From Sulfolobus sp. S-194 (GTDB lineage: Archaea; Thermoproteota; Thermoprotei_A; Sulfolobales; Sulfolobaceae), in the NCBI RefSeq assembly GCF_012222305.1, contig NZ_CP035730.1, positions 124,001-188,000 on the forward strand: 64,000 nt of DNA, written 5' to 3'. The translations under genes were made by a program, and so were the position numbers. The notes below the pieces were generated by a model. That model was not told the origin of the DNA. It was given only the letters and a program-made list of their open reading frames with translations, and made no database searches. Shown one piece after another: positions 2,337 to 52,054 of this stretch (position 1 is the stretch's first letter; each line of letters starts with the position of its first letter).

Positions 2337-2559
2337 TAATAATCCTCAGTCTCACTGTCCTACCCCTATATACTTTACAAACCTTAAAAATTCTCAAAAA
2401 TCCTTAATATTATTTATTAATGCATGAATTTTTCATAAAACCTTACGTTAAATTTAAAGCGTTTTCTTTAATTTATTATAATAACTATTAAACTAACAAT
2501 ATAGTTGGACATGTTCTGGAATATAGAGTAAACCTTATAAATAGGAAAAGCAAACGAAA

Positions 2560-2925: not shown

Positions 2926-2950
2926 TATTTGTGTGGATAGGTAATTCTTT

Positions 2951-3292: not shown

Positions 3293-3316
3293 ACCCTCTA
3301 TCCTCTTCCCCCTTTA

Positions 3317-4232
3317 ATGAAAAGGCTACTAGTCTTCGCTATACCAATCTTAGCTATCCTTCTAGTATCACTAACTACTTCAGCAGTAACAGCAAGTCAG
3401 ATAGGTGCAAACTCCATAGTATGCACATACAATAACCCATTAATAGCTGGTGTAGGATATTCAGACGAATATTTCGGTTTTCTTACACATGGTTGGAACC
3501 CAATAATAGACGTCCAAGAATACATATACGTGGCTAATGCATCATATGGGGTACTTGCGGGGACAAATCCTAACATAGTCTTCGTAGGTGTTAGATTAAG
3601 CCCCGACGCAATTGGATATTATGGTGGGGCTACAGGAGGACCAGGTACCTCAAGTAACGTGTTGGAGGCTGGTTACCTCATCGAAGTTTCCAACCCCAAC
3701 TATCCACCACAATTTGAACTTTATTATAATGAGATCATAAACAATCAATCTTCAGAATATGCCTCACCTCTGCCATACGCTTATCCATATACTAACTTAT
3801 TCGTATATTTACAGAATTTCGGTAACAGTACCGCTCAGATAATTTGGGTTGCGTATTATAATGGTGGGGCATTCATATATACCGAATACATACCTTGGAA
3901 ATATCCAGTGCCCTTTGATGCTCCTGGTCCATATGCTTATTCTGCTTCTTGTTGGCGCAGTTGAAGGAAGTAATGTCTTTGGCACTTACTTATATACTAT
4001 ACCAGAAGTTGCTGGAGGGTTAGTTCACTCATTCCAATTCTCGTATGAGTCAAACAAAAACGTATACATAGGACCAGGTAATCCCGCTTCTGGAACTAGT
4101 TTTGAAGCTATTGTTTATGGTATAACTCCATCGTCTTACAACCCAACATCAGTAGCATTGTATAATGCATGGGGCTCAAAGGGTTCTTGGAGTTATGTGT
4201 ATAATCTTGATGTTATTATCAAAGGGTTATGA
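3317..4232 (+). pseudogene. secreted protein, split by one frameshift
   Basis: The first frame (3317-3964) begins with a clear signal peptide (MKRLLVFAIPILAILLVSL) and continues with a Tyr-, Asn- and Gly-rich beta-type ectodomain. It stops soon after the residues PYAYSAS. The second frame continues with VGAVEGSNVFGTYLYTIPEV to the stop at 4232 and is of the same composition. The switch lies at about 3950, where a run CTTCTTGTTGGC could have gained a base. Joined, the protein would be about 304 residues. The composition suits a virion-surface or exported beta-sandwich protein, but I cannot name the family. A sequencing error or programmed shift is the alternative. Confidence 0.55.
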
Positions 4233-32940: not shown

Positions 32941-35900
32941 CTTTCAGCTTCGTTAAGGATTATCGTATGTCAATGTAGATGAGGATGCCTTGGCGTTATG
33001 AATCTTTCAATTCCATTGAGGATTATGATCTGATGGAAACCATTTGGCTACTATTAAAGAAGTTCTCTTTCAATTCCATTGAGGATTATGTCAGGCGGAA
33101 TTGTTATTATATCATTACACATCTCGTGTCTTTCAATTCCATTGAGGATTATGGACTTTTATAGGTTTTGGCGGTTTCAAAATCACCATTGCGAGTAACT
33201 TTCAATTCCATTGAGGATTATGATAGTTTTCTTGTGTACTCTTTACGGCTTCTGTTATGAACCATACTCTTTCAATTCCATTGAGGATTATGCTTAGCCC
33301 ACTAAAGTTATTTTATTTTTTATCAGTAAACTCTTTCAATTCCATTGAGGATTATGACTACTAATACTAAATATGTATATGTCAGCACGGACCTTTCAAT
33401 TCCATTGAGGATTATGTTACCAGCACTGTTTTCAGTAAGGATTGCCGTGAAGGTGAACTTTCAATTCCATTGAGGATTATGATTTTTTTGATGAAGAAAG
33501 CCGTGGCTCAAGGGTATATTTCGCTTTCAATTCCATTGAGGATTATGATAGTAATAAGAGCTTAGGCCCAGGGTAAAAGGAAGTGTGTACTTTCAATTCC
33601 ATTGAGGATTATGTGACATAGAATTGCAACAGATTTACGACAAATATGCACCTCTTTCAATTCCATTGAGGATTATGACAATTCATAATCAGCAGCTATT
33701 ATCTTACTCACTAACTCTCCACTTTCAATTCCATTGAGGATTATGAAACGATCTTCTGAGTGAGGCCTAGACTAGTTTTTATTTTACTTTCAATTCCATT
33801 GAGGATTATGAATACGTGATCATAGCTACATATACTTCTTCCAACGAATACTTTCAATTCCATTGAGGATTATGATATACAACACTCTACGCTGGGCAGA
33901 CATCTATTTCTACCAACTTTCAATTCCATTGAGGATTATGAGGCTGCTTATTGCTGAAAGGTGGGTTACAATAGCTTCGGTTCTTTCAATTCCATTGAGG
34001 ATTATGAGAGAGTAGGGAGTATCGAGAGAGTAGGGAGTATCGCTTATCTTTCAATTCCATTGAGGATTATGATATATGCTTAGGTAAGTTGAGGATTTCG
34101 TAAGTGTAATCTCTTTCAATTCCATTGAGGATTATGCATCGGAGATGAGAAGAAGGGCAAAATAGGCATCAGAACTTTCAATTCCATTGAGGATTATGCG
34201 TTTATATTTATATATTTTGCATTTATCTGAGCTACGAGCTTTCAATTCCATTGAGGATTATGTGGTGTAAAAGATGAATGATAACCAAAAAGCAGCATTA
34301 ATACCTTTCAATTCCATTGAGGATTATGCCAGATGGGAAAAGGATAAGATTGTATTGTGTAAGCACTACACTTTCAATTCCATTGAGGATTATGACGTTT
34401 TTTTTGCCTCGTTTTCAGTCGCTCTTTATCATTTACTTTCAATTCCATTGAGGATTATGTCTTTATCTCAGCGTTTACAGCGTCCTCCACGTACAATGGT
34501 GGTAACGCTTTCAATTCCATTGAGGATTATGTTCTTTAACTCTTCCCACTGTTCCGGGAACTCCTCCATAACTTTCAATTCCATTGAGGATTATGAGGAA
34601 AATTATAAGCTCCTTGAAACCGCTACCAGTGCTAAATGACTTTCAATTCCATTGAGGATTATGCCGGCGACATCGTCAGCCAACATTTGTACGTAATTTG
34701 ACTTTCAATTCCATTGAGGATTATGTTTTTCTCACCTCAGAGCCTTAATAGCCTAACTATGTATACTTTCAATTCCATTGAGGATTATGTTAAGGGGGAA
34801 GTAACATTATTTGGAAACTATGAAGAATGTCTTTCAATTCCATTGAGGATTATGTTGGGGTTAGATGCGGTGTTTTTCAACTTTGCCGAAGTGTTCTTTC
34901 AATTCCATTGAGGATTATGCCTGGGGTCAGGTCCCAGGAGTCCCGGTCCAGGTCGTCGGACTTTCAATTCCATTGAGGATTATGAATAGTTCCTTATCGT
35001 CGATCTTGCTCCTGCTGAAGATCTTTCTTTCAATTCCATTGAGGATTATGAGTTAGCTAAACAGATTGATGAGCTAATAACTAGCGGAAACTTTCAATTC
35101 CATTGAGGATTATGTTCCTGAAACAACGGTAGTATAGCTACCTGGACTAGACACTCTTTCAATTCCATTGAGGATTATGAGTACATCAATGAGAAGGCTA
35201 AGGAATTGGGATATAGTACTTTCAATTCCATTGAGGATTATGGGATGCGCGGAAAGAAGGCCGTTTACTTCGTCATGCCCGAAGCTTTCAATTCCATTGA
35301 GGATTATGATATAATTTGCTATTTTTGTAAATCAATTTTATATTTTCAATCTTTCAATTCCATTGAGGATTATGGCATCTTCTGATGATAATGTTAGTTC
35401 ATCATTAAATGCTGTCGTCTTTCAATTCCATTGAGGATTATGCCAAAATTATAGGGCGTCCCTTCCCGCCCCTTAGGGGGTGTCCTTTCAATTCCATTGA
35501 GGATTATGGCTACTTTCATGGCATAATTTAGAGCCCTACTTTTACCGTTCTTTCCTTTCAATTCCATTGAGGATTATGACAAGACGTGGAGCGAGATGCT
35601 TTCAGATAACGGAGATAATCTTTCAATTCCATTGAGGATTATGAAAAGTGTAATCACAATAATAGAAACAATTGACACCTGAGAAGACTGTTCCTTTCAA
35701 TTCCATTGAGGATTATGAAAGCGTACTGTAAACAGGTTGTTCGAAATCGTAAGCATTTGTCTTTCAATTCCATTGAGGATTATGTAAAATTCTCAGCGAC
35801 GATAAATGCGAAAAATTAATCCAAACACTCTTTCAATTCCATTGAGGATTATGAATAATGTGTTTCCGTTTGAGATGACTTACGACAAACAATTCTTTCA

Positions 35901-37796
35901 ATTCCATTGAGGATTATGTTTAACAACTCTTCGCCACAAATATAACCGTTCTTGGTCTTTCAATTCCATTGAGGATTATGATATTGCCTCTATGATGAGA
36001 TGTTCTAATCCTTCCGTTCTTTCAATTCCATTGAGGATTATGTCATCGAAGAAATTCAGAAGGAAGCCAACGTTATGGAAAGTCTTTCAATTCCATTGAG
36101 GATTATGAGAATAGCAGATGAGGAAGGAAATATTGAATGGGACAGGGTCTTTCAATTCCATTGAGGATTATGTCAACACCGCCGTAAGGCGATGGGGAAA
36201 CGCCGAAGTATTCTTTCAATTCCATTGAGGATTATGTTAGGAGAATAAATAACTACACCAGGGGATGATTGTATCCCACTCTTTCAATTCCATTGAGGAT
36301 TATGACAAAGATTATTCAATAATAAGAATAGGAGATAAGCAGCTTTCAATTCCATTGAGGATTATGGTGCTTAACGCTGACTTAGAATTAATTAAAGCAG
36401 CTGCAACTTTCAATTCCATTGAGGATTATGTCCCTGCAGGTCGTTGCACACATCATGGGTTTAAGAAATCTTTCAATTCCATTGAGGATTATGAAGAAAG
36501 CCTTGTCCTATATGCTGCATATCTCTTCAAGCACTTTCAATTCCATTGAGGATTATGTTATTATTATATGTTTTCTCCCCCCTCACACACCTGACACTTT
36601 CAATTCCATTGAGGATTATGAAAATGGTAGATTAAGGGTGGCCTTGGCTTTTCTAAGCTTAACTTTCAATTCCATTGAGGATTATGCTATTATTGCCCTT
36701 GTTATAAGCCTATTATATGTAAGAATCTTTCAATTCCATTGAGGATTATGTTTACAATTCGGCAGGAGATAGAAAAATTGAAAAAGCATATGGAAACTTT
36801 CAATTCCATTGAGGATTATGACAATTTGCATACTGGTAAATTACTGGTGTTGCTAAGAACTTTCAATTCCATTGAGGATTATGAAAATAAATATTGTTGA
36901 ATCTAATGTAGAAAAAGTAAAAGAAACTTTCAATTCCATTGAGGATTATGAAAAATAAATTCAGGAAATTAATTACTGAATGGATAAAAGTTGTCTTTCA
37001 ATTCCATTGAGGATTATGCCAGCATTTCTTCCCAAAACTTCCAGCCTCGCAGTCGCCTTTCAATTCCATTGAGGATTATGCGTATTCCTTAATCCTACTT
37101 AAGGTTTATTAAGGAGAACTTTTCTTTCAATTCCATTGAGGATTATGTCGGCTACAGAACCCACGATTGGGTAACAGTTTCTCAACACTTTCAATTCCAT
37201 TGAGGATTATGAGATAATTATCAGCCTTTAAAAACACCCACGTGATAATTTTAAACTTTCAATTCCATTGAGGATTATGATATAATAACAATAACAACGA
37301 ATACTGTATCAGTGTTAACAATACTTTCAATTCCATTGAGGATTATGTACAACTTGTAATATTTTTCATTAATTCTGATAGCAAACTTTCAATTCCATTG
37401 AGGATTATGTTACACCTAAATCAATAGTTTACCTAGGGAAGAAAGGGGCTTTCAATTCCATTGAGGATTATGAACGGTCCCATTACATTAAAAAGCCATT
37501 GCTTTGAAATAAACTTTCAATTCCATTGAGGATTATGTTAGTTAAAGGAAAGAAAAGAGTAGTTATGGTTATAATAGTCTTTCAATTCCATTGAGGATTA
37601 TGTCGAAAAAATTCTATTTCACATTTTACATATTTTAAATATACTTTCAATTCCATTGAGGATTATGGCCAACGCCGGGTTAATCGCCTCCTTCGTCAGG
37701 CCCTTCCTTTCAATTCCATTGAGGATTATGCGGGCGTCCAGGCGGAGGTCAGTCAGGATCCCAGTCCAGGTCCTTTCAATTCCATTGAGGATTATG
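32941..37796 (-). CRISPR. CRISPR array 3: 74 repeats plus one decayed repeat
   Basis: Repeats identical to those of array 1 run from 33004 to 37796 with period 60-72 bp and 73 spacers. One unit further left, 32941-32964 (CTTTCAGCTTCGTTAAGG then ATTATC) is a decayed repeat at the correct spacing, making one more spacer. The leader is on the right, so crRNAs are transcribed leftwards. One spacer (34007-34047) contains an 18-bp unit twice. Two GC-rich spacers (34920-34960, 37731-37772) resemble each other. Confidence 0.98.
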
Positions 37797-38018
37797 TGAT
37801 TGTTTTTATATTTCTATTTATCTTATTTTCTTTGTTTCTACTATATAAGTTTTTCTGTTTATTACATATTTGTCATTACTGAATTCTTCTTATTCCTAAG
37901 AAAAATAGGGAATTTGAAAAAGAGAAACACATAAAACATTCTCAATAAAGATACTGTAAAAAATCAAATACAAATTGAAAGAAAATCCCGAGAAAAAACG
38001 GGAACAAAAACAAAGATA
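37797..38018 (-). promoter_or_regulatory. CRISPR leader 3 (222 bp)
   Basis: Same 222-bp leader as arrays 1 and 2, with the TATA box AAAAACTTATATAG on the minus strand at about 37841-37855. Beyond the leader, TACCTAAAATAACAT at about 38017 recurs as CACCTAAAATAACAT at about 38079. Confidence 0.85.
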
Positions 38019-39379
38019 TACCTAAAATAACATAGAAGATATGACATTTACTTCTGTCAATCTCATAAAGCTAAAAATACACCTAAAATAACATGCATAC
38101 ACTGTCTAGTAGATAAAACTGAGATAATTCTCTATATATTATCTTCTTTCTGGCATATCTTTTTCCCTTGAACAGACTTGTTGTGGAGTCCGTAATCAGT
38201 TACGGCGATAGACAAGCATATAATTTCATCCCTTGAACCGCACTAATCTAAAAGAAATATTCTAGTAAAAGAAAAAGAAAATAATAATGTAAATCTTAAA
38301 TCTTCCTGATCCTACTATATGTATAAAATAGAGAATCCATTAACTGAGAGTTCAATAAAGAACAATAGAGCATGTATTTTCTATAAATGTTGTTTAATAG
38401 TATTTTTAATGATTTTCTTTCTAACATCCTTACTGTTCTGATTCACTGTTTGATCGTAATATTATCTATCAATTTGTGCTATGAGCTAATAGGACAAATT
38501 CCTATTTAATGTTTGATCTTCTGTTTAAATAAACTCCTTAATTAAAAATCAACTTAAGAATAATATCGATATATAGAATATTTCTTTTTAGATTGTAATA
38601 GAAATTTTATAATTTTAATATTTTTCTTTAAGGAATATAAACTTTAAGAGAGATGATGGCAAATATCTAGTTTGCCATAAAACTGTTTTTAAGACTATGT
38701 AGTTCAAAGAGAAAAGTTCTTTATTTCTTAGTTATCTTCTCTCTCATCTAAAATAATGTAGTTCAAAGATCACATTAGTTACTGTTTTTGCATGATCCCT
38801 TTCTCCATATAACAAATTCCATACAAGTTATATGATAGTCTGCTATTAGATTTACTGGCTCAAAGCGTGAAATAGTCTGCTATCTCTCTTATCTTTTTAG
38901 TGTTTTTATAATAAATTTCTTTATTTTAGATTTTTCTTATGATTTACCATACTATACATAGAAATAACTAATCTGTTGAGGATTGTTTAATAAGGCGTCT
39001 TCAAATGGTATAGACTGAAATTTTATTTCAAAATAAAATTCTCTAGTCTATTACCATAATGCACACTTACGGGTGATGGAACATCAGATGTTTTTAACTG
39101 AATATGACTCTTTGCTTATTTTCTACCCTATGTATTTATGCTCTAGTAAAACTAACGTAAGTTATCTATGTTGATATATTTTTAGTTCTTCTCTAAATAG
39201 GGTTACTATTGTGATGATAGTGTTAATATAACCCTTAAACATTAGTGTATGATACTATTATTGCGGATTTTACTAATCTGAAACCAGTTACTAAAGTTAA
39301 AGATAATGCTAGTGGTAATACAATCCTCTTTCCCTTAATAGATCTTCAGAGGTAGGTTAAACGGTAATCCTTCTCTTAA
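38019..39379. other. gap between array 3 and the III-D region
   Basis: 1.36 kb of AT-rich DNA without a coding stretch that I can support. It contains a nested stem-loop (38177-38216) and short direct repeats: ATGTAGTTCAAAG at about 38697 and 38756, and TAGTCTGCTAT at about 38837 and 38873. Confidence 0.5.
38177..38216 (+). ncRNA. possible structured RNA or operator
   Basis: Nested inverted repeats: outer CTTGT/ACAAG (38177-38181, 38212-38216) and inner CCGTAA-TCAG-TTACGG (38190-38205). It is much more GC-rich than its surroundings. It could be a small RNA stem-loop or a protein-binding palindrome; I cannot decide which, nor assign a strand. Confidence 0.2.
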
Positions 39380-39553
39380 CTATTTCTCAGTAAGTTTCTT
39401 ACTCTTTCTCTTTTTGATTTCTTCTCTAGCTTTACTTATCCCATAGAAGAGAATAAGATTAAGCGCTTCATCCGTAGACTTAGCCATAGTCACTTCAACT
39501 ATTTGAGCCAATTCGTAATACTCATCTTTTATTTTCAGTGGTACTTTCTTCAT
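39380..39553 (-). CDS. small ribbon-helix-helix-like regulator
   Basis: 57 residues from ATG 39553 to TAG 39380. The pattern MKKVPLKIKDEYYELAQI, then a helix, a turn at MAKSTDEALNLILFYGIS and a basic tail (KKRKSKK) fits a CopG/VapB-type ribbon-helix-helix DNA-binding protein. A palindrome lies immediately upstream and suggests autoregulation. No toxin-like partner is adjacent, so it is either a free-standing regulator or an orphan antitoxin. It sits in the gap between CRISPR array 3 and the III-D operon, but no direct regulatory link is visible. Confidence 0.6.
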   Translation of the reverse strand: MKKVPLKIKDEYYELAQIVEVTMAKSTDEALNLILFYGISKAREEIKKRKSKKLTEK

Positions 39554-39560
39554 AGGATTA

Positions 39561-39579
39561 TATTACACATATTGTAATA
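39561..39579 (-). promoter_or_regulatory. palindromic operator at the RHH gene promoter
   Basis: TATTACA (39561-39567) and TGTAATA (39573-39579) form a perfect 7-bp inverted repeat with a 5-bp centre, beginning 8 bp upstream of the ATG and overlapping the minus-strand TATA-like AAGTTTATATTAC. This is the place and shape expected for an autoregulatory ribbon-helix-helix operator. Confidence 0.5.
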
Positions 39580-39877
39580 TAAACTTTAGGACTTGAAAGC
39601 CATGAGGAATTATTTCAATATTAGAATTAAGCATTATGGAGCGTGCCCTACTGTAATGTTAATTTAATATTTATCAGATAAATTAAGAAAAATGTTTCCA
39701 ATTCAATGTGATGTTTTGAAAAAAGTGCGCATAAATAATTTTTGGCTAAAAAGGTGTGGCTCTTGGTTTGATGAAAACTTTTAAGTTACGTTAAAGTATA
39801 ATAACCTCTAAAGATATTAACAAGAAGACACTACATAGCTTTTTCACTAAATATGAAATAAATGAAATAATTGGGCG

Positions 39878-40003
39878 ATAGTATCGCCATTTGTATATAA
39901 GTTCATTATCAGAGTTTATCACCATAAGGAGAAGATGCTAGGACAAGATTATTATACACTCTATTTTAATATAGAAATATAAATAACATAATGACGACAC
40001 TGC
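39878..40003 (-). repeat. MITE family A, copy 2 (126 bp, inverted)
   Basis: Same length as copy 1 and, read on the minus strand, the same order of blocks: TGTCGTCATTATG, TTATTTATATTTCTAT, TTAAAATAG, AGCATCTTCTC and ACAAATGGCGATACTAT. Inserted between the ribbon-helix-helix gene and the III-D promoter. Confidence 0.65.
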
Positions 40004-40164
40004 AGCCATAATAGCATATTGAATAGTAAAACTTTTATATATCTTTCTTTCGTCTAACCTTTTTCATAAAAGTGAAAATGGGCTGTTAATACGCAATCTA
40101 CAAAGCATGTAGTTTAGATCAATTCAAAGTCTTTTTTAAGTTACAGACTAGACGTAAGCTAAAG

Positions 40165-40174
40165 TTTATAAATA
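40165..40174 (+). promoter_or_regulatory. promoter of the type III-D operon
   Basis: TTTATAAATA at 40165-40174, preceded by an A-rich element (GCTAAAG), lies 22-31 bp before ATG 40196. This is the classic spacing for a leaderless archaeal transcript. Confidence 0.55.
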
Positions 40175-40195
40175 TCCTTATAAATAGAAATTAAT

Positions 40196-40612
40196 ATGGC
40201 ACAGTCCTTAAGTACAAGTCAAGATTTACTCGATATAGCAACTAGAATTGCGATCTCTGCATCGCAGCCAAGACCAAGAGGGAGGCAATCTACCCAAGAG
40301 CCTGTAGTAGATTCTACAACAATTAATAACCTTTTAGCCTATATGCAGAGCAGAAAAAGCATAAAAGAACTTTTAGCCTATATCTTAAGGCAAACTGGTA
40401 GGGAGGAAATTGATAGAAATACCAGCAAGCTTTTGCTCTCAACTCTTAAGAACTTTAAGGAAAGTGATGATGATATAAATAAAGCGTTAGAACTTTTGGG
40501 TTACGTAAAATGGATTTATGAGACTATATCTGGTTTAAACATAGATGCTAGTAGGCTTAAAAACATAAGCACTTTCCAACAACTAGTAGAAGAGCTGGTA
40601 AAGATGATGTGA
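40196..40612 (+). CDS. type III-D small subunit (Csm2/Cas11-like)
   Basis: 138 residues, all-helical, without cysteines, starting the III-D operon. The charged helical bundle (for example [16 protein letters not shown] and [14 protein letters not shown]) and its operon position fit the small Cas11-type subunit that lines the inner side of type III complexes. Assignment is by context and composition rather than by a catalytic motif. Its TGA is one base from the next ATG. Confidence 0.65.
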
Positions 40613-40613
40613 T

Positions 40614-41339
40614 ATGGAAAATAGACCGTGTTATGACCTTGACACTTTGAAAAGTATAATAAAAATTGAGGGAAAGATAAGGAACGAAACCCCACTAAGA
40701 ATAGGCTACGGTAAGTCACAAAGCTTTACAGATGCTACTGATAATCCAATATTAAGAGTTAACGGAAAACCAATTATTCCCGGTTCAAGCCTAAAAGGAG
40801 CGCTTAGAAGCTTAGCCGAGGCTTATGTAAGATCATGGAGCGAAGAAAAATACAGTTTTGTATGTGATTTAGAGGACAAAGAATGCAATAGTTGTGATGA
40901 AAATAAGTACTGTATACCATGCATAATATTTGGTTTCAAAGACCTCTCATCAAGAGTTTACATACTTGACGCAATAGCTGAAAATTACTCAATTTCCCAA
41001 AGAACAATGGTCACAATTAGCAGAGTGTTTGGAGGCCAACTACCCCGTCACCTTTATACTTTAGATTATGTTGAGCCTGGCTCATTTTTCAACTTCTCCA
41101 TGTTCATGTATAACCTTAACATTGTAGATGGGGAAAGCGAAGAGTGGAAGAATAAAGCGGTAGAAGTAATGAGATACTTACTCAAGACTTTAGTAACAGA
41201 AGGGATATTTATAGGAGCTAAAAAGAGTGCTGGATTTGGACTAATTAAGCTGACTTCAGGAGAAGTTGAATTAAGGAAATTACCAGATCTCACTAGACCC
41301 GTGAAACAAAACCTAATGGAGGTGATTAAATCATGGTAG
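40614..41339 (+). CDS. type III-D Cas7 backbone RAMP (Csm3-like)
   Basis: 241 residues. RAMP signature [17 protein letters not shown] with, just before it, TDATDNPI: Asp43 sits where the catalytic Asp of Csm3 cleaves target RNA. A cluster [20 protein letters not shown] may bind zinc, as in other Cas7 thumbs. The C-terminal [17 protein letters not shown] is the second Gly-rich motif. It forms part of the crRNA-binding filament. Overlaps the next gene by 7 bp. Confidence 0.82.
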
Positions 41340-42172
41340 ATTACACATTCATAAGAAAGGATATGATAAAGAGGGAGACCGTAATAGAAGGGATTTTGGA
41401 AGTCCTTTCGCCGTTAAGAATAGGAGTAGGAAAGTCTGGAGGAATGGATCCTGCTAGTATAGCTAAAGATACAGTATTAAAGGATGTTAACGGAGTCCCG
41501 GTAATTCCCGGCTCGTCATGGAAGGGGGTATTTAGATCTACTGGAGAGACAATATTAATGGCCAGGAACATAACAGTCTGTAGTGGTGTAGGGAAGAATT
41601 ATTGCTTAAATAACTATAGAAAGTACGATGATTTCCAAGACGCTATTAGAGAGTCTGATATAAATAACGCATTAAAGATCTTCTGGGACTATACTTGCCT
41701 TAACTGTAAGCTCTTTGGTACTATGAGTGTAATTGGAGCTGTTAAGTTTTTAGACTCAAGAGCTTTTGAATATAAGCTAGGCACTAGGACTATGGTTGCA
41801 ATAAGCAGAACGGAAGGAGCCGCTGCTAGAAGGGCACTAGTCCAGGTAGAATTTGTAGAACCTGGTTCTAAATTTAATTTCAAACTCATAGGTACCAATT
41901 TGCCAAACTACGCAATAGGCTACTTATTAACAATTATGAAAAGAATTCACGATGGTTATACTCAAATAGGAGGACATAAAAGTAGGGGATTTGGGTTCGT
42001 TAAGTTCGCTAATTTACACTTATTAAATTCTGGTAGTAAGAAAATAGGAGAGGATGACTTACAAGCTTCATTACCAGACGAAATTAAGGCAGAAGGTGAT
42101 AAGTTCTTTGAAGAAGTAAAGCCTTATATGGAGGCATTTAATAATGCAAAGATACAATACCCAGTACACTAA
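41333..42172 (+). CDS. type III-D Cas7 backbone RAMP (Csm3-like)
   Basis: 279 residues. Contains [15 protein letters not shown], preceded by AKDTVLKD (Asp46 as the likely RNA-cleaving residue), a [12 protein letters not shown]-like Cys motif ([11 protein letters not shown]) and the C-terminal Gly-rich [21 protein letters not shown] 41333 has GAGGTGAT about 7 bp upstream. A paralogue of the 40614 protein; in type III-D several different Cas7 proteins alternate in one backbone. Confidence 0.85.
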
Positions 42173-42944
42173 AAGAAATAGTCCAGGATTAGAGGGAGTG
42201 CTAGAGCTAGAAATGGAAGTAGTTTCTGAATATTTGCACGTGGGTAGTGGGATATATGATGTGGAAATACTTAAGCCCTTAAGTGATATTGACCAACTTG
42301 TTGAGAGTGCTATAAAAGGTAATATTCCGGATGTTAGTAATTACTTTTCACCATTAGTTCATGAAATGAACAGATACTTAGATAGAATAGTAATCCCAGG
42401 ATCTACAATTAAGGGTCTTGTGAGGACCAGGTTAGAGCTCTCAGTAAGAGATTCTTGCTTTATAGTTTCAAGCCGATCAAACAGCTCATCTGAAACTTAT
42501 AAGAAGATATTCCGTTATCCTAAGCCAAGAAGAAGTGACAGATTCCCCGATAATGTTTGTCCAGTATGTGACTTACTTGGAAATTCTGGATTAAGCAGTA
42601 GGGTTTCTTTCTCAGACTTCGTTATGGACCAAGGCAAGATAGATTACGTTAACGTCAGAGGGCAATATTATGAAAGTTCAGTAAAGGGGTCTAAGTTTAG
42701 GGGAAGAGTTGTATATCACTCATTAAAAGCTACTGACTTAGGCATGCTCCTTTACGGTTTAGGTTTTAGGATTAAAAACGGGCAACTAAAAGGAAAGGTA
42801 ATGTTAATGGGCAGATTTAAGTACTCAGACAAGCGTTTCGGTAGGATAGTATTTTCATTAGTTTCACCAATGCAGGAATATGTTAAGGCATTAAACGAAT
42901 TTGTAAATAGATTCAAGCCTTACGATTATAATGAGGAGTGGTAA
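42144..42944 (+). CDS. type III-D Cas7-like RAMP
   Basis: 266 residues. RAMP motif [17 protein letters not shown], then a CPVCDLLG zinc-type Cys pair and a glycine/lysine-rich C-terminus. The stretch before IPGST (EMNRYLDR) lacks the Asp-x-x-Pro context of Csm3, so this subunit may not cut RNA, or may use Asp80. It starts 29 bp inside the preceding gene, with GGAGG about 11 bp upstream of ATG 42144. Confidence 0.8.
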
Positions 42945-42946
42945 TT

Positions 42947-43120
42947 ATGACAGATAAGATCTGTATTAAACCAGACTTATCCATAGAGATAGGTGGAGAG
43001 GAGTGCTTTACAGTAGTTGAAGTAGAAATGGAAAAAGAAAGTTCTCTATTAAAGATAAAATTTTTGGAAAGAGATCTTGAGTACATAGGGATGGTGGTGA
43101 GAAATGACACTAAGGGGTAA
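42947..43120 (+). CDS. unassigned 57-residue protein inside the III-D operon
   Basis: 57 residues from ATG 42947 (GTG 42938 is in frame), with AGGAG upstream, and overlapping cas10 by 17 bp. Composition is acidic and beta-like (LSIEIGGEECFTVVEVEMEK, LLKIKFLERDLEYIGMVV). No motif is recognised. Tight coupling on both sides argues that it is translated. It could be an extra small subunit, a Cas10-associated peptide or a regulator of the complex. Confidence 0.5.
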   Translation: MTDKICIKPDLSIEIGGEECFTVVEVEMEKESSLLKIKFLERDLEYIGMVVRNDTKG

Positions 43121-45716
43121 GTTGAACTTACCAGAGTTTAAGGTAGTATTTGATGGAGATAACGGTAAACAGTATGAGGGGAATACTGAATTAGAAGAGA
43201 AAATAATAAACACATTAACGCATATGGCTCAAATTTCGTGTGAAATAGCCGAAAATGATGAAAAGAAGGCAATGGACATCTTCGCAGATATAATCTCAAT
43301 GTTATATAAGCTACCAATGTTCGTATCATATACACCGATATCAGAAGAGGAGAGCTTAAAATATATTCCAACGGCCTTTGAGTATTTCTTTATTTATACA
43401 GTAGGAAGACATGTGACTGACCTTAGTATAGATAAAAATATGTCACTGGAGGAAATATTTAAAAAATTGGAGAACTTTAAATACATTAGTTTATTAAGGT
43501 CCTTGGTCAGAAATTATTTTTCTTCAATAAAAGACATTTACGAGGCACTTATTAATACACCAGCCGACACCAGACCCGGTTTCAACTTTACCTCACTGGC
43601 CTCTCATCTACAACTTACCTCATTAGTCTCATGGTTACTCCAGCCCCACTCTATAGACCTAAACTACCTAAGAGTAGCATCACTACTTCACGATATAGGT
43701 AAACTTATAGACCCTCGACATCACGTAACTAAAGCAATAAACATCTTAAGAGAAGTAGAAAATAATCTGGAAAGTACAAATTCATGTATAAAACTTGATA
43801 GGGTAAAAGACCTAGTCTCTTCACACCATGCAGACTTTGAAAGTATAATCCAAAAAGCTGACCATTTAGCCTCAAGTGCAGATAGACTCACAGAGCTTGT
43901 AGTGAAGGCTTTAGATGTCGTGGAGGGGGGTAAAGAAGTTAAGGAGTGCTTTAATAAGAGCCATGAAGAGTCTTACAACTGCTTTGATAAACTAGGAAAA
44001 GAGAAATATGAAAAAGCCTCAAAAGAGATATATAAATTCATTTTAAGCCATGTAATATCTGAAGATATAATAAACAACGAAGAAGCAAAAGTGTTCCCAT
44101 TCATACCAGATAGGGTAGAAAAGAATAAGAGAGAAACACAGCCTGGAAGATTACTCGGCTATATTGTCTATATAGACTTACCTAGTATACAGAACTTCAT
44201 TACAAACTTTCCTAAGCTAAGAGATATGTCATTTGCAAGCATGTTGGTTGATTTCCTAGTTAGCGTTTACTCTTTCATGTTACTTGATACTGAATTCTCT
44301 AAAAGGACTAAATCGAGGCTGCCAGCGGAGGCATTGCTTAGTGGTTACGGTGGGCACTCATATATAGTAATAAGAAAGGATATTGGTAATGATAGCTGGG
44401 ATATAAAAAGTATATTTAAGGGAATAAAACTATTGGAAAACTTAGACGTAAAAATAAGCGTGAGCGTTTCAGATTTCGCTTATGACAATTATATACTAAA
44501 CTATAATGAAGTCTGGGATAAGATAAAAGAACAGTTTAGTGAGAGGTATTTGTTGGACTTTAATGAGGAGATATACTCGGTTGGACTTCACAGAGTCTGT
44601 GATAACTGTGGCATAAGACCGGCTAGTAAATTAGAAGAGGAGTTTGGTGAAAAATTATACCTATGTAAAAGATGTGCTGAAATAAGAGGGCTATCATCAT
44701 CTAAAGGTTTTGTAAGTAAAGTTAAATCAACCTATTTGCTCTATATAGATAACGATGTGAAAAAGATTAATCCCGAAAATGCCGCTAAGAAGCTAAACAT
44801 TAACTACACAGAGTACGCAATGGAGTTCCTAGCAGGCTATAAAAAACCGGAAGACACAAAATACGTATCCATAGTGAAGGCTGACGGAAATAGGGGTAGT
44901 ATAATATTTTCAGCAAGTGCAACCTTCTCCGATTACGTAGATAAGAGCTTCAGACTGGACTATGGTGTTAAAAAAGCATTTTACGATACGTTAGTAGAAT
45001 TGGCTAAAGCAGAGACTGAAGACTTTCCGCTTACTAGTAGAGTCCTTTCTGGAGTATTATACTTAGGTGGAGATGATATAGCAATACTACTTCCATCAAT
45101 AATTGCAATACCTTTCACAGTCAGACTATTTGAGAAAGCGAAAGAACTAACAGGCTTTACCTTTAAACTTGGAATTCTCAGCATAAAACCCGACCACCCG
45201 ATACAGTTCGCCTTCCAAGCAGTTGATGAGCTAATGGAGAAGAGTAAAATAAAACCGCCTAAAGGGGCAAAAGACCCTTCAGTATATAACAAAACCAGCA
45301 TAGCTTGTATGGTCTTTTCATCAACATTAGCCAGCAGAGCTGTTGTAGAATCAGAGATAAAAAGATATACAGACAGAAAAACACCTTACTTAGCGGTAAC
45401 TAATGATATTGATAAAGTAAAGGAATTACTAAAAGTAGTAAACTTATACGACTTCAAAAACGTTATAGAACTTTATATCAAAGATGATAAAAAGGGAGTT
45501 AGGGATAAAATGAGGGACTTAGAAGATGCAGTAGGTTTCGCAGAAACAACTAACGGTTATACAAAAGCCTTAGCCTACATCTTAAGACAAATAGCAAGAG
45601 GAGACAGAAAAGAAGTATTGAAAAAAGTAGTTAAAGACTCAGAAAGTCCCTTGTCCGGAATACCACTTTACGATTACTATTTTATACTCAAAACATTTAG
45701 GGTGGGTGTAGGATAA
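43104..45716 (+). CDS. cas10: Cas10, type III-D signature protein
   Basis: 870 residues. N-terminal HD nuclease domain with His196-Asp197 (SLLHDIGKLID, and His-His at 206-207 in PRHHVTKA). A zinc ribbon at about 499-524 (CDNC...CKRC) lies between the two palm domains. The cyclase motif YLGGDDIAIL is intact (GGDD 655-658). So both ssDNA cleavage and cyclic oligoadenylate synthesis are possible. A GGTGGTGAG lies just before ATG 43104. Length is normal for this family. The next gene begins directly at its stop. Confidence 0.95.
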   Translation: MTLRGKLNLPEFKVVFDGDNGKQYEGNTELEEKIINTLTHMAQISCEIAENDEKKAMDIFADIISMLYKLPMFVSYTPISEEESLKYIPTAFEYFFIYTVGRHVTDLSIDKNMSLEEIFKKLENFKYISLLRSLVRNYFSSIKDIYEALINTPADTRPGFNFTSLASHLQLTSLVSWLLQPHSIDLNYLRVASLLHDIGKLIDPRHHVTKAINILREVENNLESTNSCIKLDRVKDLVSSHHADFESIIQKADHLASSADRLTELVVKALDVVEGGKEVKECFNKSHEESYNCFDKLGKEKYEKASKEIYKFILSHVISEDIINNEEAKVFPFIPDRVEKNKRETQPGRLLGYIVYIDLPSIQNFITNFPKLRDMSFASMLVDFLVSVYSFMLLDTEFSKRTKSRLPAEALLSGYGGHSYIVIRKDIGNDSWDIKSIFKGIKLLENLDVKISVSVSDFAYDNYILNYNEVWDKIKEQFSERYLLDFNEEIYSVGLHRVCDNCGIRPASKLEEEFGEKLYLCKRCAEIRGLSSSKGFVSKVKSTYLLYIDNDVKKINPENAAKKLNINYTEYAMEFLAGYKKPEDTKYVSIVKADGNRGSIIFSASATFSDYVDKSFRLDYGVKKAFYDTLVELAKAETEDFPLTSRVLSGVLYLGGDDIAILLPSIIAIPFTVRLFEKAKELTGFTFKLGILSIKPDHPIQFAFQAVDELMEKSKIKPPKGAKDPSVYNKTSIACMVFSSTLASRAVVESEIKRYTDRKTPYLAVTNDIDKVKELLKVVNLYDFKNVIELYIKDDKKGVRDKMRDLEDAVGFAETTNGYTKALAYILRQIARGDRKEVLKKVVKDSESPLSGIPLYDYYFILKTFRVGVG

Positions 45717-46328
45717 ATGGAATTTAAAGTTCTGGTCAAAAACTTAACTTCCCTAACTGTAGGAGGAGGAAGCACTATAGGCGGAGCTGACATTCCATTA
45801 AACCCTATGATATTACCACCCTCTACAGTAAAAGGAGTCCTAAGGACTTCAATATCCAATTACTTACCAAAGGGTTATACATCATGCCGTAAAATAGAGC
45901 CCAACGAAATTAAGGAAGCTCATAAAGACGGAAATGTTTGTGATGTCTGTAAGCTCTTTGGCTATCCAGACTATAAAGATTCCGGCTGTTTTGCACTTAC
46001 GGTAAAAGTACCGGAGGTAAAGAAATATAGAATAACTAGAGTAAAAATCTACGATAAAACACAGACAAGCGAAGAAGGTTCTCTATTTACACAAGAGATA
46101 ATACCACCAAATACAGAATTTGAAATAGAGGTACACTATAGGGATATCTGTGGAGAAAAATTACTTAAATTGTTATTATACTCCTTCCTCTCTCTAAGGT
46201 TTTGGAGAATTGGAAGAAATGCAATGGTAGATGTAAAGTTAAAAGATGACATATGTGTGAAAATAAAATGCGACCAAGAAATGAAAGAAATAGTCTCTTC
46301 TCTGTCAGAATACTTGTGGGGTGATTAA
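45717..46328 (+). CDS. type III-D RAMP subunit
   Basis: 203 residues. LPPSTVKGVLRTSISNYL is the RAMP Gly/Lys loop, with GGADIPLNP (Asp25) before it. A CDVCKLFG Cys pair and a C-terminal FWRIGRNAMVDVKL loop follow. It begins directly after the cas10 stop. It is shorter than the other Cas7 subunits and could be the Cas7-like or capping subunit next to Cas10. The exact position in the complex is not readable from sequence. Confidence 0.75.
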   Translation: MEFKVLVKNLTSLTVGGGSTIGGADIPLNPMILPPSTVKGVLRTSISNYLPKGYTSCRKIEPNEIKEAHKDGNVCDVCKLFGYPDYKDSGCFALTVKVPEVKKYRITRVKIYDKTQTSEEGSLFTQEIIPPNTEFEIEVHYRDICGEKLLKLLLYSFLSLRFWRIGRNAMVDVKLKDDICVKIKCDQEMKEIVSSLSEYLWGD

Positions 46329-46332
46329 CAGA

Positions 46333-47280
46333 ATGCGGTTTGTCCTATTAAAATTAGAAGTTAACGGGTATGTAACAACGAGAGTGAGAAGAATTGGGAA
46401 CTATTACTTCTCTACAACAGACTATATACCAGCGACACAGCTAAGAGGAGCAATATTAGCTGAGTACTATTACCAAAAAGGAAAAATAGACCAGTCCTTC
46501 TTTACATCACCAGCATTCCCTATTGACTCAGCACCCTCACATTATTTCAGTCCTGCTGAAGGGAGAAAAAGCAGTGAATTTACAGAAGAGAAAGAGATAT
46601 TAAGGAAAAAGAATGAAGAACTGGAGAAAAATAAGAGTTTGAAAGAAGTCCTAAAACTAAGCAGGGATAAGAAACCGAGAATAGGGATGATAATAAAAAG
46701 AGTAGAAAGTAAAGGAGTAGAAGAAATAAATAAGTACACTAAATTCAGCACGGAGTCATTCATCTCAATGCATGTAGCTATAGAAAAAACTCTGGCTTCA
46801 TCTTACCACAGAATGCTATTTGCTTACGAGTACAAAAAGTTCGACGAACTTTGGGCATTAGCTAAGCCAAGCGAAGTTATTGATATTATCAAAACAGGAA
46901 AGATAAGGTTAGGGAGAGGAAGAAATAGAACCAATACATTAGCAACAGTAGAGGTTATTAGGGAAATAGACTTACCAGAACCACAGGGGCTATCTTACTG
47001 TCTCTCACAATGTATACCATCACTTTTCGGTAAAGAACTGTTTACGGTAGGAGAAGTAGAGGGAAGAAAAGTGATCATAGGAAGCACATCAACTTATGTA
47101 GGTTGGTTCACTAACGATAGCATATCCGGTCAAAAACCATCTTTCAAAACCCTGAGTGAAGGAACCTTAGTACTGGTTAAGAATAAGGAGAACTATGAGC
47201 AACTCCTTCCCGCAGGGTTAAACTTCATGTTTGGAATAGATGATCTAGATTCATTATTAAGAAAGGTGATGGTTAAATGA
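46333..47280 (+). CDS. csx10: Csx10-like Cas5-group RAMP of type III-D
   Basis: About 315 residues. ATG 46333 is preferred because GGGGTGAT ends 7 bp upstream; GTG 46321 is in frame. The N-terminal RAMP strand VLLKLEVNGYVTTRVRR and YIPATQLRGAILAEYY match the Csx10-type 5'-handle-binding subunit. A charged insertion (about 75-135) and the Gly-rich GKIRLGRGRNRTNTLATVEV follow. Csx10 is characteristic of subtype III-D, and this is one reason for the subtype call. Confidence 0.7.
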   Translation: MRFVLLKLEVNGYVTTRVRRIGNYYFSTTDYIPATQLRGAILAEYYYQKGKIDQSFFTSPAFPIDSAPSHYFSPAEGRKSSEFTEEKEILRKKNEELEKNKSLKEVLKLSRDKKPRIGMIIKRVESKGVEEINKYTKFSTESFISMHVAIEKTLASSYHRMLFAYEYKKFDELWALAKPSEVIDIIKTGKIRLGRGRNRTNTLATVEVIREIDLPEPQGLSYCLSQCIPSLFGKELFTVGEVEGRKVIIGSTSTYVGWFTNDSISGQKPSFKTLSEGTLVLVKNKENYEQLLPAGLNFMFGIDDLDSLLRKVMVK

Positions 47281-47963
47281 GCAGCGAGAGAAAAATATAC
47301 CTATTTAAACTAAAATTCAACACTCCCTACGGATTGAGAGTAGGGGGAAATAGTCAGGATATAAACGCCTTAATACCCCTATCAATAGGTGAACATTACC
47401 TAATACCATCAAGCACCTGGAAAGGGATATTCAGAAGAGCTACAGAGGTCTTACTGGCAAAACCATCCCATTTTAATGAACATAAAAACGAAGAAGTTCA
47501 ATATGACAGCAGCATGGATGAACTGTTAAAGTCTAAGGGAATTGAGAAAGAGGAAGAGAAAAAGAAGTTCATAGCAATGTGGAACTGTCCTATAGAGAGA
47601 CTCTATGGAAGCGAATATTTTGCCTCAGCAGTTACTTTCTCTGATACATTAATTAAAGCTGGGATTACAGAAAGGTTCCACGCAACAATAGACAGAAAGA
47701 CAAAGAAAGGCATGGAAAGATATCTATTTAGAGAACAAATTGTAGATGTAAAAAGCGTTAATGCTAAGATTATAGTAAGGGATAGAATTGAGGAGTGGGT
47801 TAAAACATTGAAGTTCCTTAGCGATGTAGGGACCTTCATAGGTGGAGGAAAATCTAGAGGAATAGGCTATGCAATGTTGGATTGGAAAGAGAGCGAATAT
47901 GCAGAAGTTGATAAATTAACTAGAAAAATTACGTTTAGACCCTTAGAAGAATTAAAGATATAA
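47277..47963 (+). CDS. type III-D Cas7-like RAMP, end of operon
   Basis: 228 residues. IPSSTWKGIFRRATEVLL is the RAMP loop, preceded by SQDINALIP (Asp28 a candidate catalytic residue). The C-terminal GTFIGGGKSRGIGYAML is the second Gly-rich motif. ATGA overlap with csx10 and GGTGAT 8 bp upstream show coupling. It closes the operon; no cyclic-nucleotide-activated nuclease follows. Confidence 0.8.
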   Translation: MSSERKIYLFKLKFNTPYGLRVGGNSQDINALIPLSIGEHYLIPSSTWKGIFRRATEVLLAKPSHFNEHKNEEVQYDSSMDELLKSKGIEKEEEKKKFIAMWNCPIERLYGSEYFASAVTFSDTLIKAGITERFHATIDRKTKKGMERYLFREQIVDVKSVNAKIIVRDRIEEWVKTLKFLSDVGTFIGGGKSRGIGYAMLDWKESEYAEVDKLTRKITFRPLEELKI

Positions 47964-48060
47964 TTTTAAAAACATCGTTTCTAATCTATGAAAATTACGT
48001 TAAAGTAAAAATATAAATTTGGAAGAACCACATATCCCTAATACGCAGAGCTCAAATATA

Positions 48061-48151
48061 GGAAGAAAAAACCGTAACCACGCAACCAACGTTTTCAATT
48101 TTAATAGTTTTTATCACAGCCGCTTTATTTCTGATAAATAGAAGAACTTAG
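48061..48151 (+). pseudogene. C-terminal anchor remnant of a surface-protein paralogue
   Basis: A frame without a start, KTVTTQPTFSILIVFITAAL then FLINRRT and a stop at 48151, resembles the C-terminal Thr-Pro plus transmembrane anchor of the protein at 48197-49918. It looks like the tail of a lost third copy of that gene. Confidence 0.35.
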
Positions 48152-48196
48152 ACTGTTCGGATTAAGTTTTTAAATATACTATTCTGTTTTTTATCA

Positions 48197-49918
48197 ATGA
48201 AAAGTGATATAAAAATACTTAATCTAATACTTCTGATATTCGTTATTCTGAGCTTTTTAGTTTCTATGGGACAAACAAACACAAGCGTAATACAGACCAC
48301 AGCTTCCTCTCCCACTCACCCAATAAAAATAGACAGTGTAACACCATATGACAATGGCGTAGTAGTAACACTTAGTTACACAAACTACACTGATTATAAA
48401 GGCTACCATACTTACACTGAAATATACGTATATTTCTTTAACAGAACTGCTAAAACGTTACTGTATAATTCAGCACCTACGAATTGCCCTTCCGCCTTTA
48501 CTTTTGTTTATGACGGAAAACTCTATCTCGTGGTAGAAGTAACTACTTATAAGTCTTTCGAGTCTTACGTATATGTGTTTAAGGGCCTAAAACTTATCGA
48601 CAATTACACCACAAACTATATGTTCATAATAAAACATGAACCACTGTTTAACCTATCAGCACCAATACTAAAAAGCATAAACTTCTCCATCCTCAGCAGT
48701 TCTACTAAGATCACTCTCATGCTTAGCGAGACTAATATTACATTTGTTAATCAATGTCCCGTAATAGTGCTCCAACTACCCAAGGGAGTACTGGTTGTAT
48801 TAAAGGAATTCCTAAGCATATCCGCTATAAGACAAGGGAAGTTTTACCCATATGTATTTAACTTCACTATGTATAGCTATAACGGTAAAATAATATGGAG
48901 TGAGGTGTATCACATATTCTTAAAGAGTCCACTCCTCTATGTCATCAGTCAGTATAGTGAGAGCGTAATTGTAAGTAGTTTTCTGAAGGAGAATTACGCT
49001 ACTTTAGTCGGTAATGAGCTATATATCCTTAACGTCACTGGTATTGATGCAAAGAATCTAACTGCTAACATAACGATAGTCGGGATAAACTTGAAGAACG
49101 GTGAGATAGTTAATAAGATACCGCTGAATAACGTACCGCCGTATCAAGAAGCATTATTAAATATAGGCGGTAAGTTATACGTAACGATCTTCAACTTTAA
49201 TAATGAAACCACCGTGATGGAGTATAACGGAAGCGGTATGACCTTAGTAACCAAAATACCGGTTAAAATAGAGGTTGTACAATCCTTTCCGCCAGGCATA
49301 AGGACCCCTCCAGGTCAAACAGTCTATTATATCAAATATATAGACGTTGCTGTACCCAGGATATTTTACGACTTCGGCAAATACCTCGTAATAGTAAACC
49401 CCACATCTACAGGATATAATGTTACCGATATATATTCCGGCGGAGTAGCCAATTACACTTTAAATGAAAATGTCCAAATCCATCTAATTAGTGACAGAGT
49501 AATCGTGTTAGGTCAGAACGATAACTTCTCTTTGGCATTCCTAAACGGAGACGGTTTTTTGGAAGGGATTGTAAACATAGGTAAGGCTGACAACCTTACA
49601 TCCATTTTCGCTCGCTGTCTCTGTATTAACAACACTGTAAGTTATCCTGAGATAAGTGTTGCCGAAGTCAACCCCCATGAGTATTACATAGTTAAAGTTT
49701 ACTCTAGTTCTGAAGTAACAGTATATGAGGTAACACTCAACGGTTCGACAGATATCAATGTTAATTCAATCATTATACCAGTAGGTAACGCGACTTATAC
49801 TACCCATTTAACTAAAATATATATTCCGACATCTAAGCCTTTAACAACTCCAATTCTGGTATCTATAATAATAGTAGTAGTAATCCTAGCTTTAGTCATA
49901 AAGAATAGAATAAAGTAA
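48197..49918 (+). CDS. surface protein, C-terminally anchored, paralogue 1
   Basis: 573 residues. N-terminal signal segment (about 7-26), a large ectodomain rich in Asn, Thr and Tyr with many N-glycosylation sites and repeated beta-strand modules (IDSVTPYDNGVVVTLSYTNY, YDGKLYLVVEV, NIGGKLYVTIFN), then a transmembrane helix (about 550-568) and a basic tail. The module spacing suggests a beta-propeller. The same architecture and opening motif occur in the convergent gene at 50242-51756. TATA-like GTTTTTAAATAT is about 25 bp before ATG 48197. Function unknown; probably a cell-surface receptor-like or adhesion protein. Confidence 0.7.
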   Translation: MKSDIKILNLILLIFVILSFLVSMGQTNTSVIQTTASSPTHPIKIDSVTPYDNGVVVTLSYTNYTDYKGYHTYTEIYVYFFNRTAKTLLYNSAPTNCPSAFTFVYDGKLYLVVEVTTYKSFESYVYVFKGLKLIDNYTTNYMFIIKHEPLFNLSAPILKSINFSILSSSTKITLMLSETNITFVNQCPVIVLQLPKGVLVVLKEFLSISAIRQGKFYPYVFNFTMYSYNGKIIWSEVYHIFLKSPLLYVISQYSESVIVSSFLKENYATLVGNELYILNVTGIDAKNLTANITIVGINLKNGEIVNKIPLNNVPPYQEALLNIGGKLYVTIFNFNNETTVMEYNGSGMTLVTKIPVKIEVVQSFPPGIRTPPGQTVYYIKYIDVAVPRIFYDFGKYLVIVNPTSTGYNVTDIYSGGVANYTLNENVQIHLISDRVIVLGQNDNFSLAFLNGDGFLEGIVNIGKADNLTSIFARCLCINNTVSYPEISVAEVNPHEYYIVKVYSSSEVTVYEVTLNGSTDINVNSIIIPVGNATYTTHLTKIYIPTSKPLTTPILVSIIIVVVILALVIKNRIK

Positions 49919-50005
49919 CTGTATGTTAGATTGCTAACATACTATATACACAAGTTTACTACCGGAACACCACATTGTGTATTAAGAAAGAGAAAGATAG
50001 ATTAA

Positions 50006-50160
50006 CATTTTACGTAAAAATCTTACCTTGTTTTTTAAATAAATATAGATAGTTATACTATATTTTATTGCAAAGAGAGTGAGTTTATCTGTACTAGACT
50101 AAAAACTTTATACTATAAAAACACGTTTTTAAATAATTATTAGCTGTATAAGTTTCCGAT
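50006..50160 (-). repeat. dispersed repeat family B, copy 2
   Basis: Read on the minus strand it has GTTTTTATAGTATAAAG, GATAAACTCACTCTC and AAATATAGTATAACTAT in the order of the other family B copies. The outer end TTTTACGTAAAAATCTTAC is itself nearly palindromic. It lies between the two surface-protein paralogues. Confidence 0.5.
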
Positions 50161-50241
50161 AAATGCTATAGATTTTTTGTTATGTTATTTAATAGTTGCT
50201 AAGGCTTGATATTTCATGCTTTACCTATAAAAATCTAATCT

Positions 50242-51756: not shown

Positions 51757-51924
51757 TAGAAATGTTCAGTAACGGGTAAGCTAAAAATTTTCTGGTTATA
51801 GTGTATTATCTATTTTAACTTGTTTCTATAGAGAGAGAAAGAGCCTAAAAGCATGAAAGCAAGTACTTATAGCACTTATAGGAATAGCATTTATCGGAAA
51901 ATCCTTGCCTTGAATAATTATTTC

Positions 51925-52054
51925 AAAAGATATCATAGATATTTATACTATATTTCATCTCAAATAGAACAAATTTATCAGCATTAGATGAAATATTATA
52001 CTATAAAATCGTATTTGTTTAAAAACTATTCTAACGTAAGATTTTTACATAAAA
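51925..52054 (-). repeat. dispersed repeat family B, copy 3
   Basis: On the minus strand it shows GTAAAAATCTTACGTTAGAA, TAGTTTTTAAACAAATACGA, TTTTATAGTATAATA and ATGAAATATAGTATAAATAT in order, closely matching copy 4 at 54993. Confidence 0.6.

What the first reader, a model, noticed from the sequence alone, without database searches (positions are those of the whole stretch)
42947..43120. Unassigned 57-residue protein translated within the III-D operon
It is coupled to the RAMP gene before and overlaps cas10 by 17 bp. It has a ribosome-binding site, and no family I know matches. Such retention in a compact operon suggests a real role: extra subunit, Cas10 chaperone or inhibitor.
Basis: partly seen in the sequence, partly recalled or inferred. 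Interest (0 to 1): 0.55.

Follow-up and report, generated by a model that had tools for sequence, protein, structure and literature searches.

The report
Overlooked tiny partner gene of Cas10
A 57-residue protein encoded just before cas10 in an archaeal CRISPR operon is real and stands in the same place in every closely related operon looked at, including that of Saccharolobus solfataricus, whose purified CRISPR complex was described as having only eight kinds of subunit.

Summary
ORF 42947-43120 lies 2 nt after a cas7 (RAMP) stop and overlaps cas10 by 17 bp. All 22 Sulfolobaceae genomes (of 31 searched) with this III-D cas10 have a 44-71-residue ORF at the same place, as do two loci outside the sampled family. 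The six closest pairs give dN/dS 0.06-0.23. Cys and Leu are invariant, a second Cys occurs in 24 of 24, and the predicted fold is five strands. More distant Thermoproteota loci mostly lack it: in 22 of 26 examined, cas7 runs straight into cas10. No convincing relative was found in families, PDB, phages, plasmids or viral contigs. S. solfataricus has it, yet the papers seen name eight subunits; its proteins were identified against NCBInr, and Cas10 came from the native host, so the protein was neither tested nor excluded. Best explanation: a dedicated Cas10 assembly partner or labile subunit, working like Csx19 but not detectably related to it. Subunit, chaperone and regulator cannot be separated here; published base-subcomplex masses leave no room for a tightly bound copy.

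The parts
42947..43120 (+). small ORF, 57 aa, partner protein encoded before cas10 (no established name)
   Evidence: comparable ORF at the same place in 22 of 22 family loci; dN/dS < 1
42933..42938 (+). GAGGAG, Shine-Dalgarno-like, 14-9 nt before the small ORF, inside the end of cas7
   Evidence: a GAGG/GGAGG/GGTGA-type site lies within 22 nt before the small ORF in 22 of 22 loci, partly dictated by the cas7 codons
43096..43101 (+). GGTGAG, Shine-Dalgarno-like, before cas10, inside the small ORF
43104..43120 (+). 17-bp overlap of the small ORF with cas10
42144..42944 (+). cas7-like RAMP gene directly upstream (position of Sso1427)
   Evidence: Pfam RAMPs 6.2e-12; PADLOC Csm3 1.1e-13
43104..45716 (+). 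cas10, 870 aa, with HD domain and GGDD in the translation
   Evidence: Pfam HD 5e-8; GGDD read; 8bmw_K (S. solfataricus III-D Cas10) E 2.3e-226
40196..40612 (+). cas11 / Csm2-like small subunit
   Evidence: PADLOC Csm2 CAS-III-D 8.6e-46
40614..42172 (+). two cas7-like genes (40614-41339, 41333-42172)
   Evidence: TIGR02581 7e-75 and 2e-83
45717..46328 (+). cas7-like gene (position of Sso1430)
   Evidence: PADLOC Csm3 3.7e-21
46321..47280 (+). cas5 / Csx10-like, III-D signature
   Evidence: PADLOC Cas5_IIId 2.4e-135
47277..47963 (+). cas7-like gene (position of Sso1432)
   Evidence: PADLOC Csm3 6.4e-35; TIGR02581 9.3e-17, below its cut-off

Best explanation
The ORF encodes a real, small all-beta Cas protein that belongs to the Sulfolobales-type III-D effector and works on Cas10. 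Shown: the gene, its fixed place and overlap with cas10, purifying selection, and co-occurrence with this cas10 lineage in the genomes searched. Inferred: the protein is made just before Cas10, from the same messenger and by ribosomes that run on into cas10. It folds into a five-strand mini-domain, possibly held by its conserved Cys pair, and binds Cas10 while the complex assembles on Cas5/Cas7. It either stays as a labile single copy or leaves after assembly. In effect it would do for archaeal III-D what the beta-rich Csx19 does for cyanobacterial III-Dv, where Csx19 sits between Cas10 and Cas5 and is needed for assembly.
For: Same place in 22 of 22 Sulfolobaceae III-D loci, plus L069 and G354/L075. 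In the family-wide profile search each of the 22 III-D genomes has one strong hit (E <= 1.7e-5), at cas10, and none of the 9 genomes without III-D cas10 scores below 0.1 (the profile contains these 22, so one search is the fair control). dN/dS 0.06-0.23 in the six closest pairs, and below 1 in all 15 of 19 pairs above 45% identity that gave a value. Codon-position excess p 4e-9. Second Cys 9-18 residues after the first in 24 of 24; Cys 4.2% against 1.2% in nine neighbouring genes. Same five strands in two models built from the same five sequences. It overlaps cas10 by 4-17 bp in 20 of 22 loci (19, two of these with a cas10 start codon other than ATG/GTG/TTG assigned by the script; the window). 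In the published reconstitution seven subunits came from E. coli but Cas10 from S. solfataricus, and native complex was used for the cyclic-oligoadenylate work seen, so in those papers a host-made Cas10 partner was not left out by design. Csx19 precedent: passages of PMC11026444.
Against: LC-MS of the native complex found eight proteins. Masses I computed without the small protein already match the published Cas10 (96.3 against 97 kDa), Cas10:1430 (119.5 against 120) and base subcomplex (216.5 against 216) species. As described, the 3.5 A model 8BMW has no such chain. I found no interaction, expression or knock-out data. Position next to cas10 is only guilt by association; it is equally next to cas7.
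Confidence: 0.45

Rival explanations
1. A true ninth subunit in the mature complex, one copy, not in the Cas10/Cas5 base but with the crRNA and Cas7 filament, missed because the ORF may not have been in the searched protein database.
For: With the cryo-EM stoichiometry and the Ser16-truncated Cas11 that mass spectrometry found, I compute 418,450 Da; the 2013 passages give 427,611 Da measured, so 9.2 kDa are unaccounted for. One small protein (6,617 Da) leaves 2.5 kDa. The published calculated mass (428 kDa) is reproduced only with full-length Cas11 (428,211 Da) (published values). Proteins were identified against NCBInr.
Against: The 2013 stoichiometry (3:1:4) leaves only 2.5 kDa without any small protein, and a 5:1:3 count leaves 5.7 kDa, so the gap may be a miscount of 1425 against 1426 copies. 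The 2023 paper quotes 423 kDa for the same native measurement, which would halve the gap. No such chain is described in 8BMW.
Confidence: 0.2
2. A regulator that binds Cas10 and damps its HD nuclease or cyclase until a target is bound.
For: Tied to one Cas10 lineage in the genomes searched. Cas10 activity in this system is tightly controlled (PMC6053304, abstract start and passages).
Against: Native complex, which may contain it, is active; no data test inhibition.
Confidence: 0.15
3. Only translational coupling matters: the ORF carries ribosomes from cas7 into cas10 and the peptide has no function.
For: Tight spacing on both sides and Shine-Dalgarno-like sites before the small ORF in 22 of 22.
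Against: dN/dS well under 1 in close pairs, invariant Cys and Leu, Cys pair in 24 of 24. More distant loci couple cas7 to cas10 directly without it.
Confidence: 0.05
4. Chance open frame.
For: Short ORFs are common; 58 ORFs of 40 aa or more are listed in 34000-52000.
Confidence: 0.01

Closest known systems
Csx19 (TIGR03984), type III-D1/III-Dv subunit
   Same: small, beta-rich, accessory to a III-D Cas10; in III-Dv sits between Cas10 and Cas5 and is required for assembly (PMC11026444 passages)
   Different: 186 aa in Synechocystis; no profile similarity found (hhalign probability 0.1%; no NCBIfam hit); in Synechocystis encoded between cas7-type genes, not before cas10; no hit over the family's cut-off in 398 genomes sampled from the phylum, one weak hit below it
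S. solfataricus III-D effector SsoCsm (8BMW)
   Same: same operon order and homologous subunits; the matching genome also encodes the small ORF (54 aa) between the Sso1427 and Sso1428 genes
   Different: published composition has eight proteins; the small ORF is not mentioned in the text seen
Cas11/Csm2 small subunit
   Same: small protein in the same operon
   Different: operon already has one; our protein is predicted all-beta, whereas canonical small subunits are helical (PMC11026444 passage)
Csx26 (type III-G)
   Same: Sulfolobales-specific extra type III protein
   Different: belongs to a different subtype with an inactivated Cas10 Palm (PMC12669027 passages); not compared by sequence here

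Membership tests
Csx19 (TIGR03984) | matches the TIGR03984 model | tested here: not met
   window protein: no NCBIfam family at E <= 0.01; L027 and L069 homologues: none at E <= 1; hhalign of the 22-row profile against three Csx19-like proteins, probability 0.1%. Genome searches with the model gave nothing in the own genome, but no control genome rang
Csx19 (TIGR03984) | shared fold with solved Csx19 (8s9t_B) | tested here: inconclusive
   8s9t_B not among the rows shown of the Foldseek or VIA-align results; short model, weak scores throughout
Csx19 (TIGR03984) | needed for III-D complex assembly | not testable with these tools
   needs bench work
Type III-D operon component | encoded in the operon with cas10, cas5 of III-D type, cas7s and cas11 | tested here: met
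Type III-D operon component | conserved at the same place across the lineage under purifying selection | tested here: met
   22 of 22 family loci
Type III-D operon component | physically part of the effector | not testable with these tools
   published mass data are ambiguous
Cas11 small subunit | helical fold | tested here: not met
   two models all-beta, pLDDT 76 and 83
Viral anti-CRISPR or other mobile protein | homologues in viruses, phages or plasmids | tested here: inconclusive
   none in one viral-contig scan, phages with two queries or plasmids with one query; short queries

The most novel reading that the evidence does not exclude
A so far unnamed ninth core protein, general to the Sulfolobales III-D effector, present in the very complex whose structure and native mass were published without it, accounting for most of a 9-kDa gap between the cryo-EM composition and the 2013 measured mass, and required for Cas10 to assemble or to be held in check.
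Probability: 0.25. Interest if true: 0.7.

Novelty: new variant of a known kind. Interest (0 to 1): 0.52.

Why it matters
The S. solfataricus III-D complex is a model for cyclic-oligoadenylate signalling. If a conserved partner of Cas10 has been overlooked there, reconstitutions that make Cas10 in a foreign host would lack it, the published subunit list is incomplete, and assembly or control of Cas10 in archaea gains a factor that can be deleted and tested directly.

Tried and rejected
Chance ORF: rejected. Pure translational coupling: unlikely. Relation to Csx19 by sequence: none found. Relation to the different ORFs (88-126 codons between stops) that stand between cas7 and cas10 in some distant loci (L060-L063, L071, L072, L085, L095): only the L071/L072 pair was compared by profile, with no similarity; for six of the eight (not L085 or L095) a Pfam and NCBIfam scan gave only matches below cut-off, the best GFA at 0.002 for L061. 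Split-off from cas7: from reading the C-termini I do not favour it; not tested formally. Known fold: weak SH3/Tudor/Sm-like small-barrel rows only, no Foldseek E below 1.5 (first model) or 2.1 (second), no VIA Z above 4.5; Csx19 entries were not among the rows shown. UNC79 hits of the profile at E 1.3-1.7 taken as chance. PADLOC and PHROGs matches at E 0.026-0.091, in one or two of 22 members each, taken as chance. Saci_1893-1899: the passages describe a Sulfolobus-specific type III system, taken to be another one. Paper searches; in the listings and passages seen none describes this ORF, but most subscription papers are not held and supplements could not be read. G182, G242, G254, G402 and G477 were not examined; L064, L065 and L097 held too little upstream DNA to judge fully. 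L036 and L038 are second pieces of cas10 from genomes already counted. L001-L014, the direct hits, include weak matches at other places and were not counted.

Full report
What is there. The window (positions 124001-188000 of a single 2,789,526-bp contig) holds a III-D operon: cas11, cas7, cas7, cas7, a 57-aa ORF, cas10, cas7, cas5, cas7. The ORF at 42947-43120 starts 2 nt after a cas7 stop and overlaps cas10 by 17 bp.

Is it real? A Cas10 search of 31 Sulfolobaceae genomes gave 22 with a match. In all 22 a short frame stands between the last cas7 and cas10; with starts chosen by me, these are 44-71 residues, 18 ATG, 2 GTG and 2 TTG. The 22-row alignment has an invariant Cys and, five residues on, an invariant Leu; the consensus begins MKxCIxxDLSxE. 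A second Cys follows 9-18 residues after the first in 24 of 24 family members (22 plus L069 and L075). Nei-Gojobori dN/dS for the six closest pairs, with the last codons trimmed, is L016/L017 0.017/0.073, L025/L027 0.025/0.454, L024/L025 0.069/0.743, L024/L027 0.079/0.454, L019/L021 0.147/1.096, L034/L037 0.228/1.267. For more distant pairs dS is near saturation; 4 of the 19 pairs above 45% identity gave no value. Substitutions in five of these close pairs fall 20/19/63 on codon positions 1/2/3, binomial p 4e-9 (two of the pairs share L025 and are not independent).

Fair control. Because a profile finds its own members, each genus was held out in turn. 19 of 22 members were recovered at E <= 3.6e-5 among 6,208 six-frame ORFs. 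L030 came at 2.5, just below an unrelated frame at 2.0, and L032 and L033 were missed, so these three rest on position and motif. The best unrelated frame in any run was 0.45. L075, never in the profile, scored 0.0025-0.36, in each run just above the best unrelated frame; L069 scored 2.2e-10 or better.

How far it reaches. Of 398 genomes sampled from the phylum, 47 have a related Cas10, 31 of them outside the family. I examined the place before cas10 in 26 of those 31. One (G354, the closest Cas10 outside the family, E 2.6e-214) has the small ORF. Three (G154, G251, G530) have a different ORF of about 100 codons there. In 22 cas7 runs straight into cas10. Among further order-level matches, G210, G048 and G143 have a different ORF there and G153 and G184 could not be judged fully. 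Of the named records, L071 and L072 have a different ORF, L067, L068 and L070 repeat genomes already counted, and Thermocladium modestius L069 has the small ORF, though its locus is so Sulfolobaceae-like that transfer or contamination is possible. A tree of cas7 genes near cas10 puts the ORF-bearing loci on one side of a branch with support 99/99, using 17 of 24 such loci and 27 others. Eight rows were dropped because my pattern did not find their cas7, and for several outgroup rows the lengths show that another cas7 paralogue was taken. It is compatible with one gain in the ancestor of this III-D lineage, no more.

Structure. Two AlphaFold models from the same five sequences, one of the window protein (pLDDT 76) and one of the Thermocladium homologue (pLDDT 83), agree on five strands. 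The fold searches find no convincing relative.

The S. solfataricus link. The Cas10 of G016 begins like chain K of 8BMW and has the same length of 829 (compare), and peptides listed in the 2013 paper for Sso1424 and Sso1432 occur in its operon, so G016 is taken as S. solfataricus. Its small ORF encodes 54 residues. The 2013 paper (PMC3807668, passages) and the 2023 paper (PMC9945777, parts 1-3 of 4 of the text) list eight proteins, in 2013 identified by a search against NCBInr. The 2023 paper reports poor resolution at Cas10, above all its N-terminal half, in the consensus map. The in vitro reconstitution (PMC4770243, abstract and passages) took Cas10 from S. solfataricus and the rest from E. 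coli. The cyclic-oligoadenylate work (PMC6053304, passages) used native complex. None of these, as far as seen, tests the small protein or excludes it.

Mass budget. From the G016 sequences I computed 425,146 Da for the 2013 stoichiometry and 418,450 Da for the cryo-EM one, against 427,611 Da measured in 2013; the 2023 paper quotes 423 kDa for that measurement. The 428 kDa calculated in 2023 is reproduced with full-length Cas11 (428,211 Da), although the 2013 data show Cas11 starting at Ser16. One small protein would fill most of the 9.2-kDa gap under the cryo-EM count. Against it, the base subcomplex (216.5 computed, 216 measured) and Cas10:1430 (119.5, 120) leave no room. Lysine methylation, adducts and copy-number uncertainty make the argument suggestive only; the tag mass was approximated.

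Function. I commit to a Cas10-dedicated assembly partner or labile subunit, with the Csx19 precedent (PMC11026444, passages) as the working analogy. It is not a Csx19 by sequence. Whether it stays in the complex, leaves after assembly, or tunes Cas10 is open.

Novelty. No family in Pfam, NCBIfam, PADLOC or PHROGs covers it convincingly, and the eight literature searches named in Tried and rejected showed no description. It may well be annotated as a hypothetical protein in public genomes; I could not check general protein databases.

Noticed in passing
window 33800-37700 (stretch searched): CRISPR array with 59 repeats found in the stretch, core CTTTCAATTCCATTGAGGATTATG, spacing 62-74 nt in the copies listed; its ends were not determined. 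It lies about 2.5 kb upstream of the III-D operon.
   Followed up: partly
window 39380-39553, minus strand: 57-aa ORF that looks by eye like a ribbon-helix-helix type regulator or antitoxin between the array and the operon; not searched.
   Followed up: no
L103 (G005), reverse complement 757-3440: cas10 split into two frames of 455 and 450 codons by a frameshift or sequencing error, while the small ORF upstream stays open.
   Followed up: partly
L060, L061, L062, L063, L071, L072, L085, L095: Distant Thermoproteota type III loci carry different ORFs (88-126 codons between stops) between cas7 and cas10; possible further small Cas proteins at the same place.
   Followed up: partly
L074, minus strand: Thermoproteota contig with a weak Csx19 (TIGR03984) match beside cas7-like genes, E 1.5e-4, below the family cut-off.
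   Followed up: partly
published 8BMW paper (PMC9945777): The quoted 428-kDa calculated mass is reproduced only with full-length Cas11, against the Ser16 start found by mass spectrometry in 2013; with the short form the model is 9.2 kDa below the 427.6 kDa measured in 2013 (4.6 kDa below the 423 kDa quoted in 2023).
   Followed up: yes
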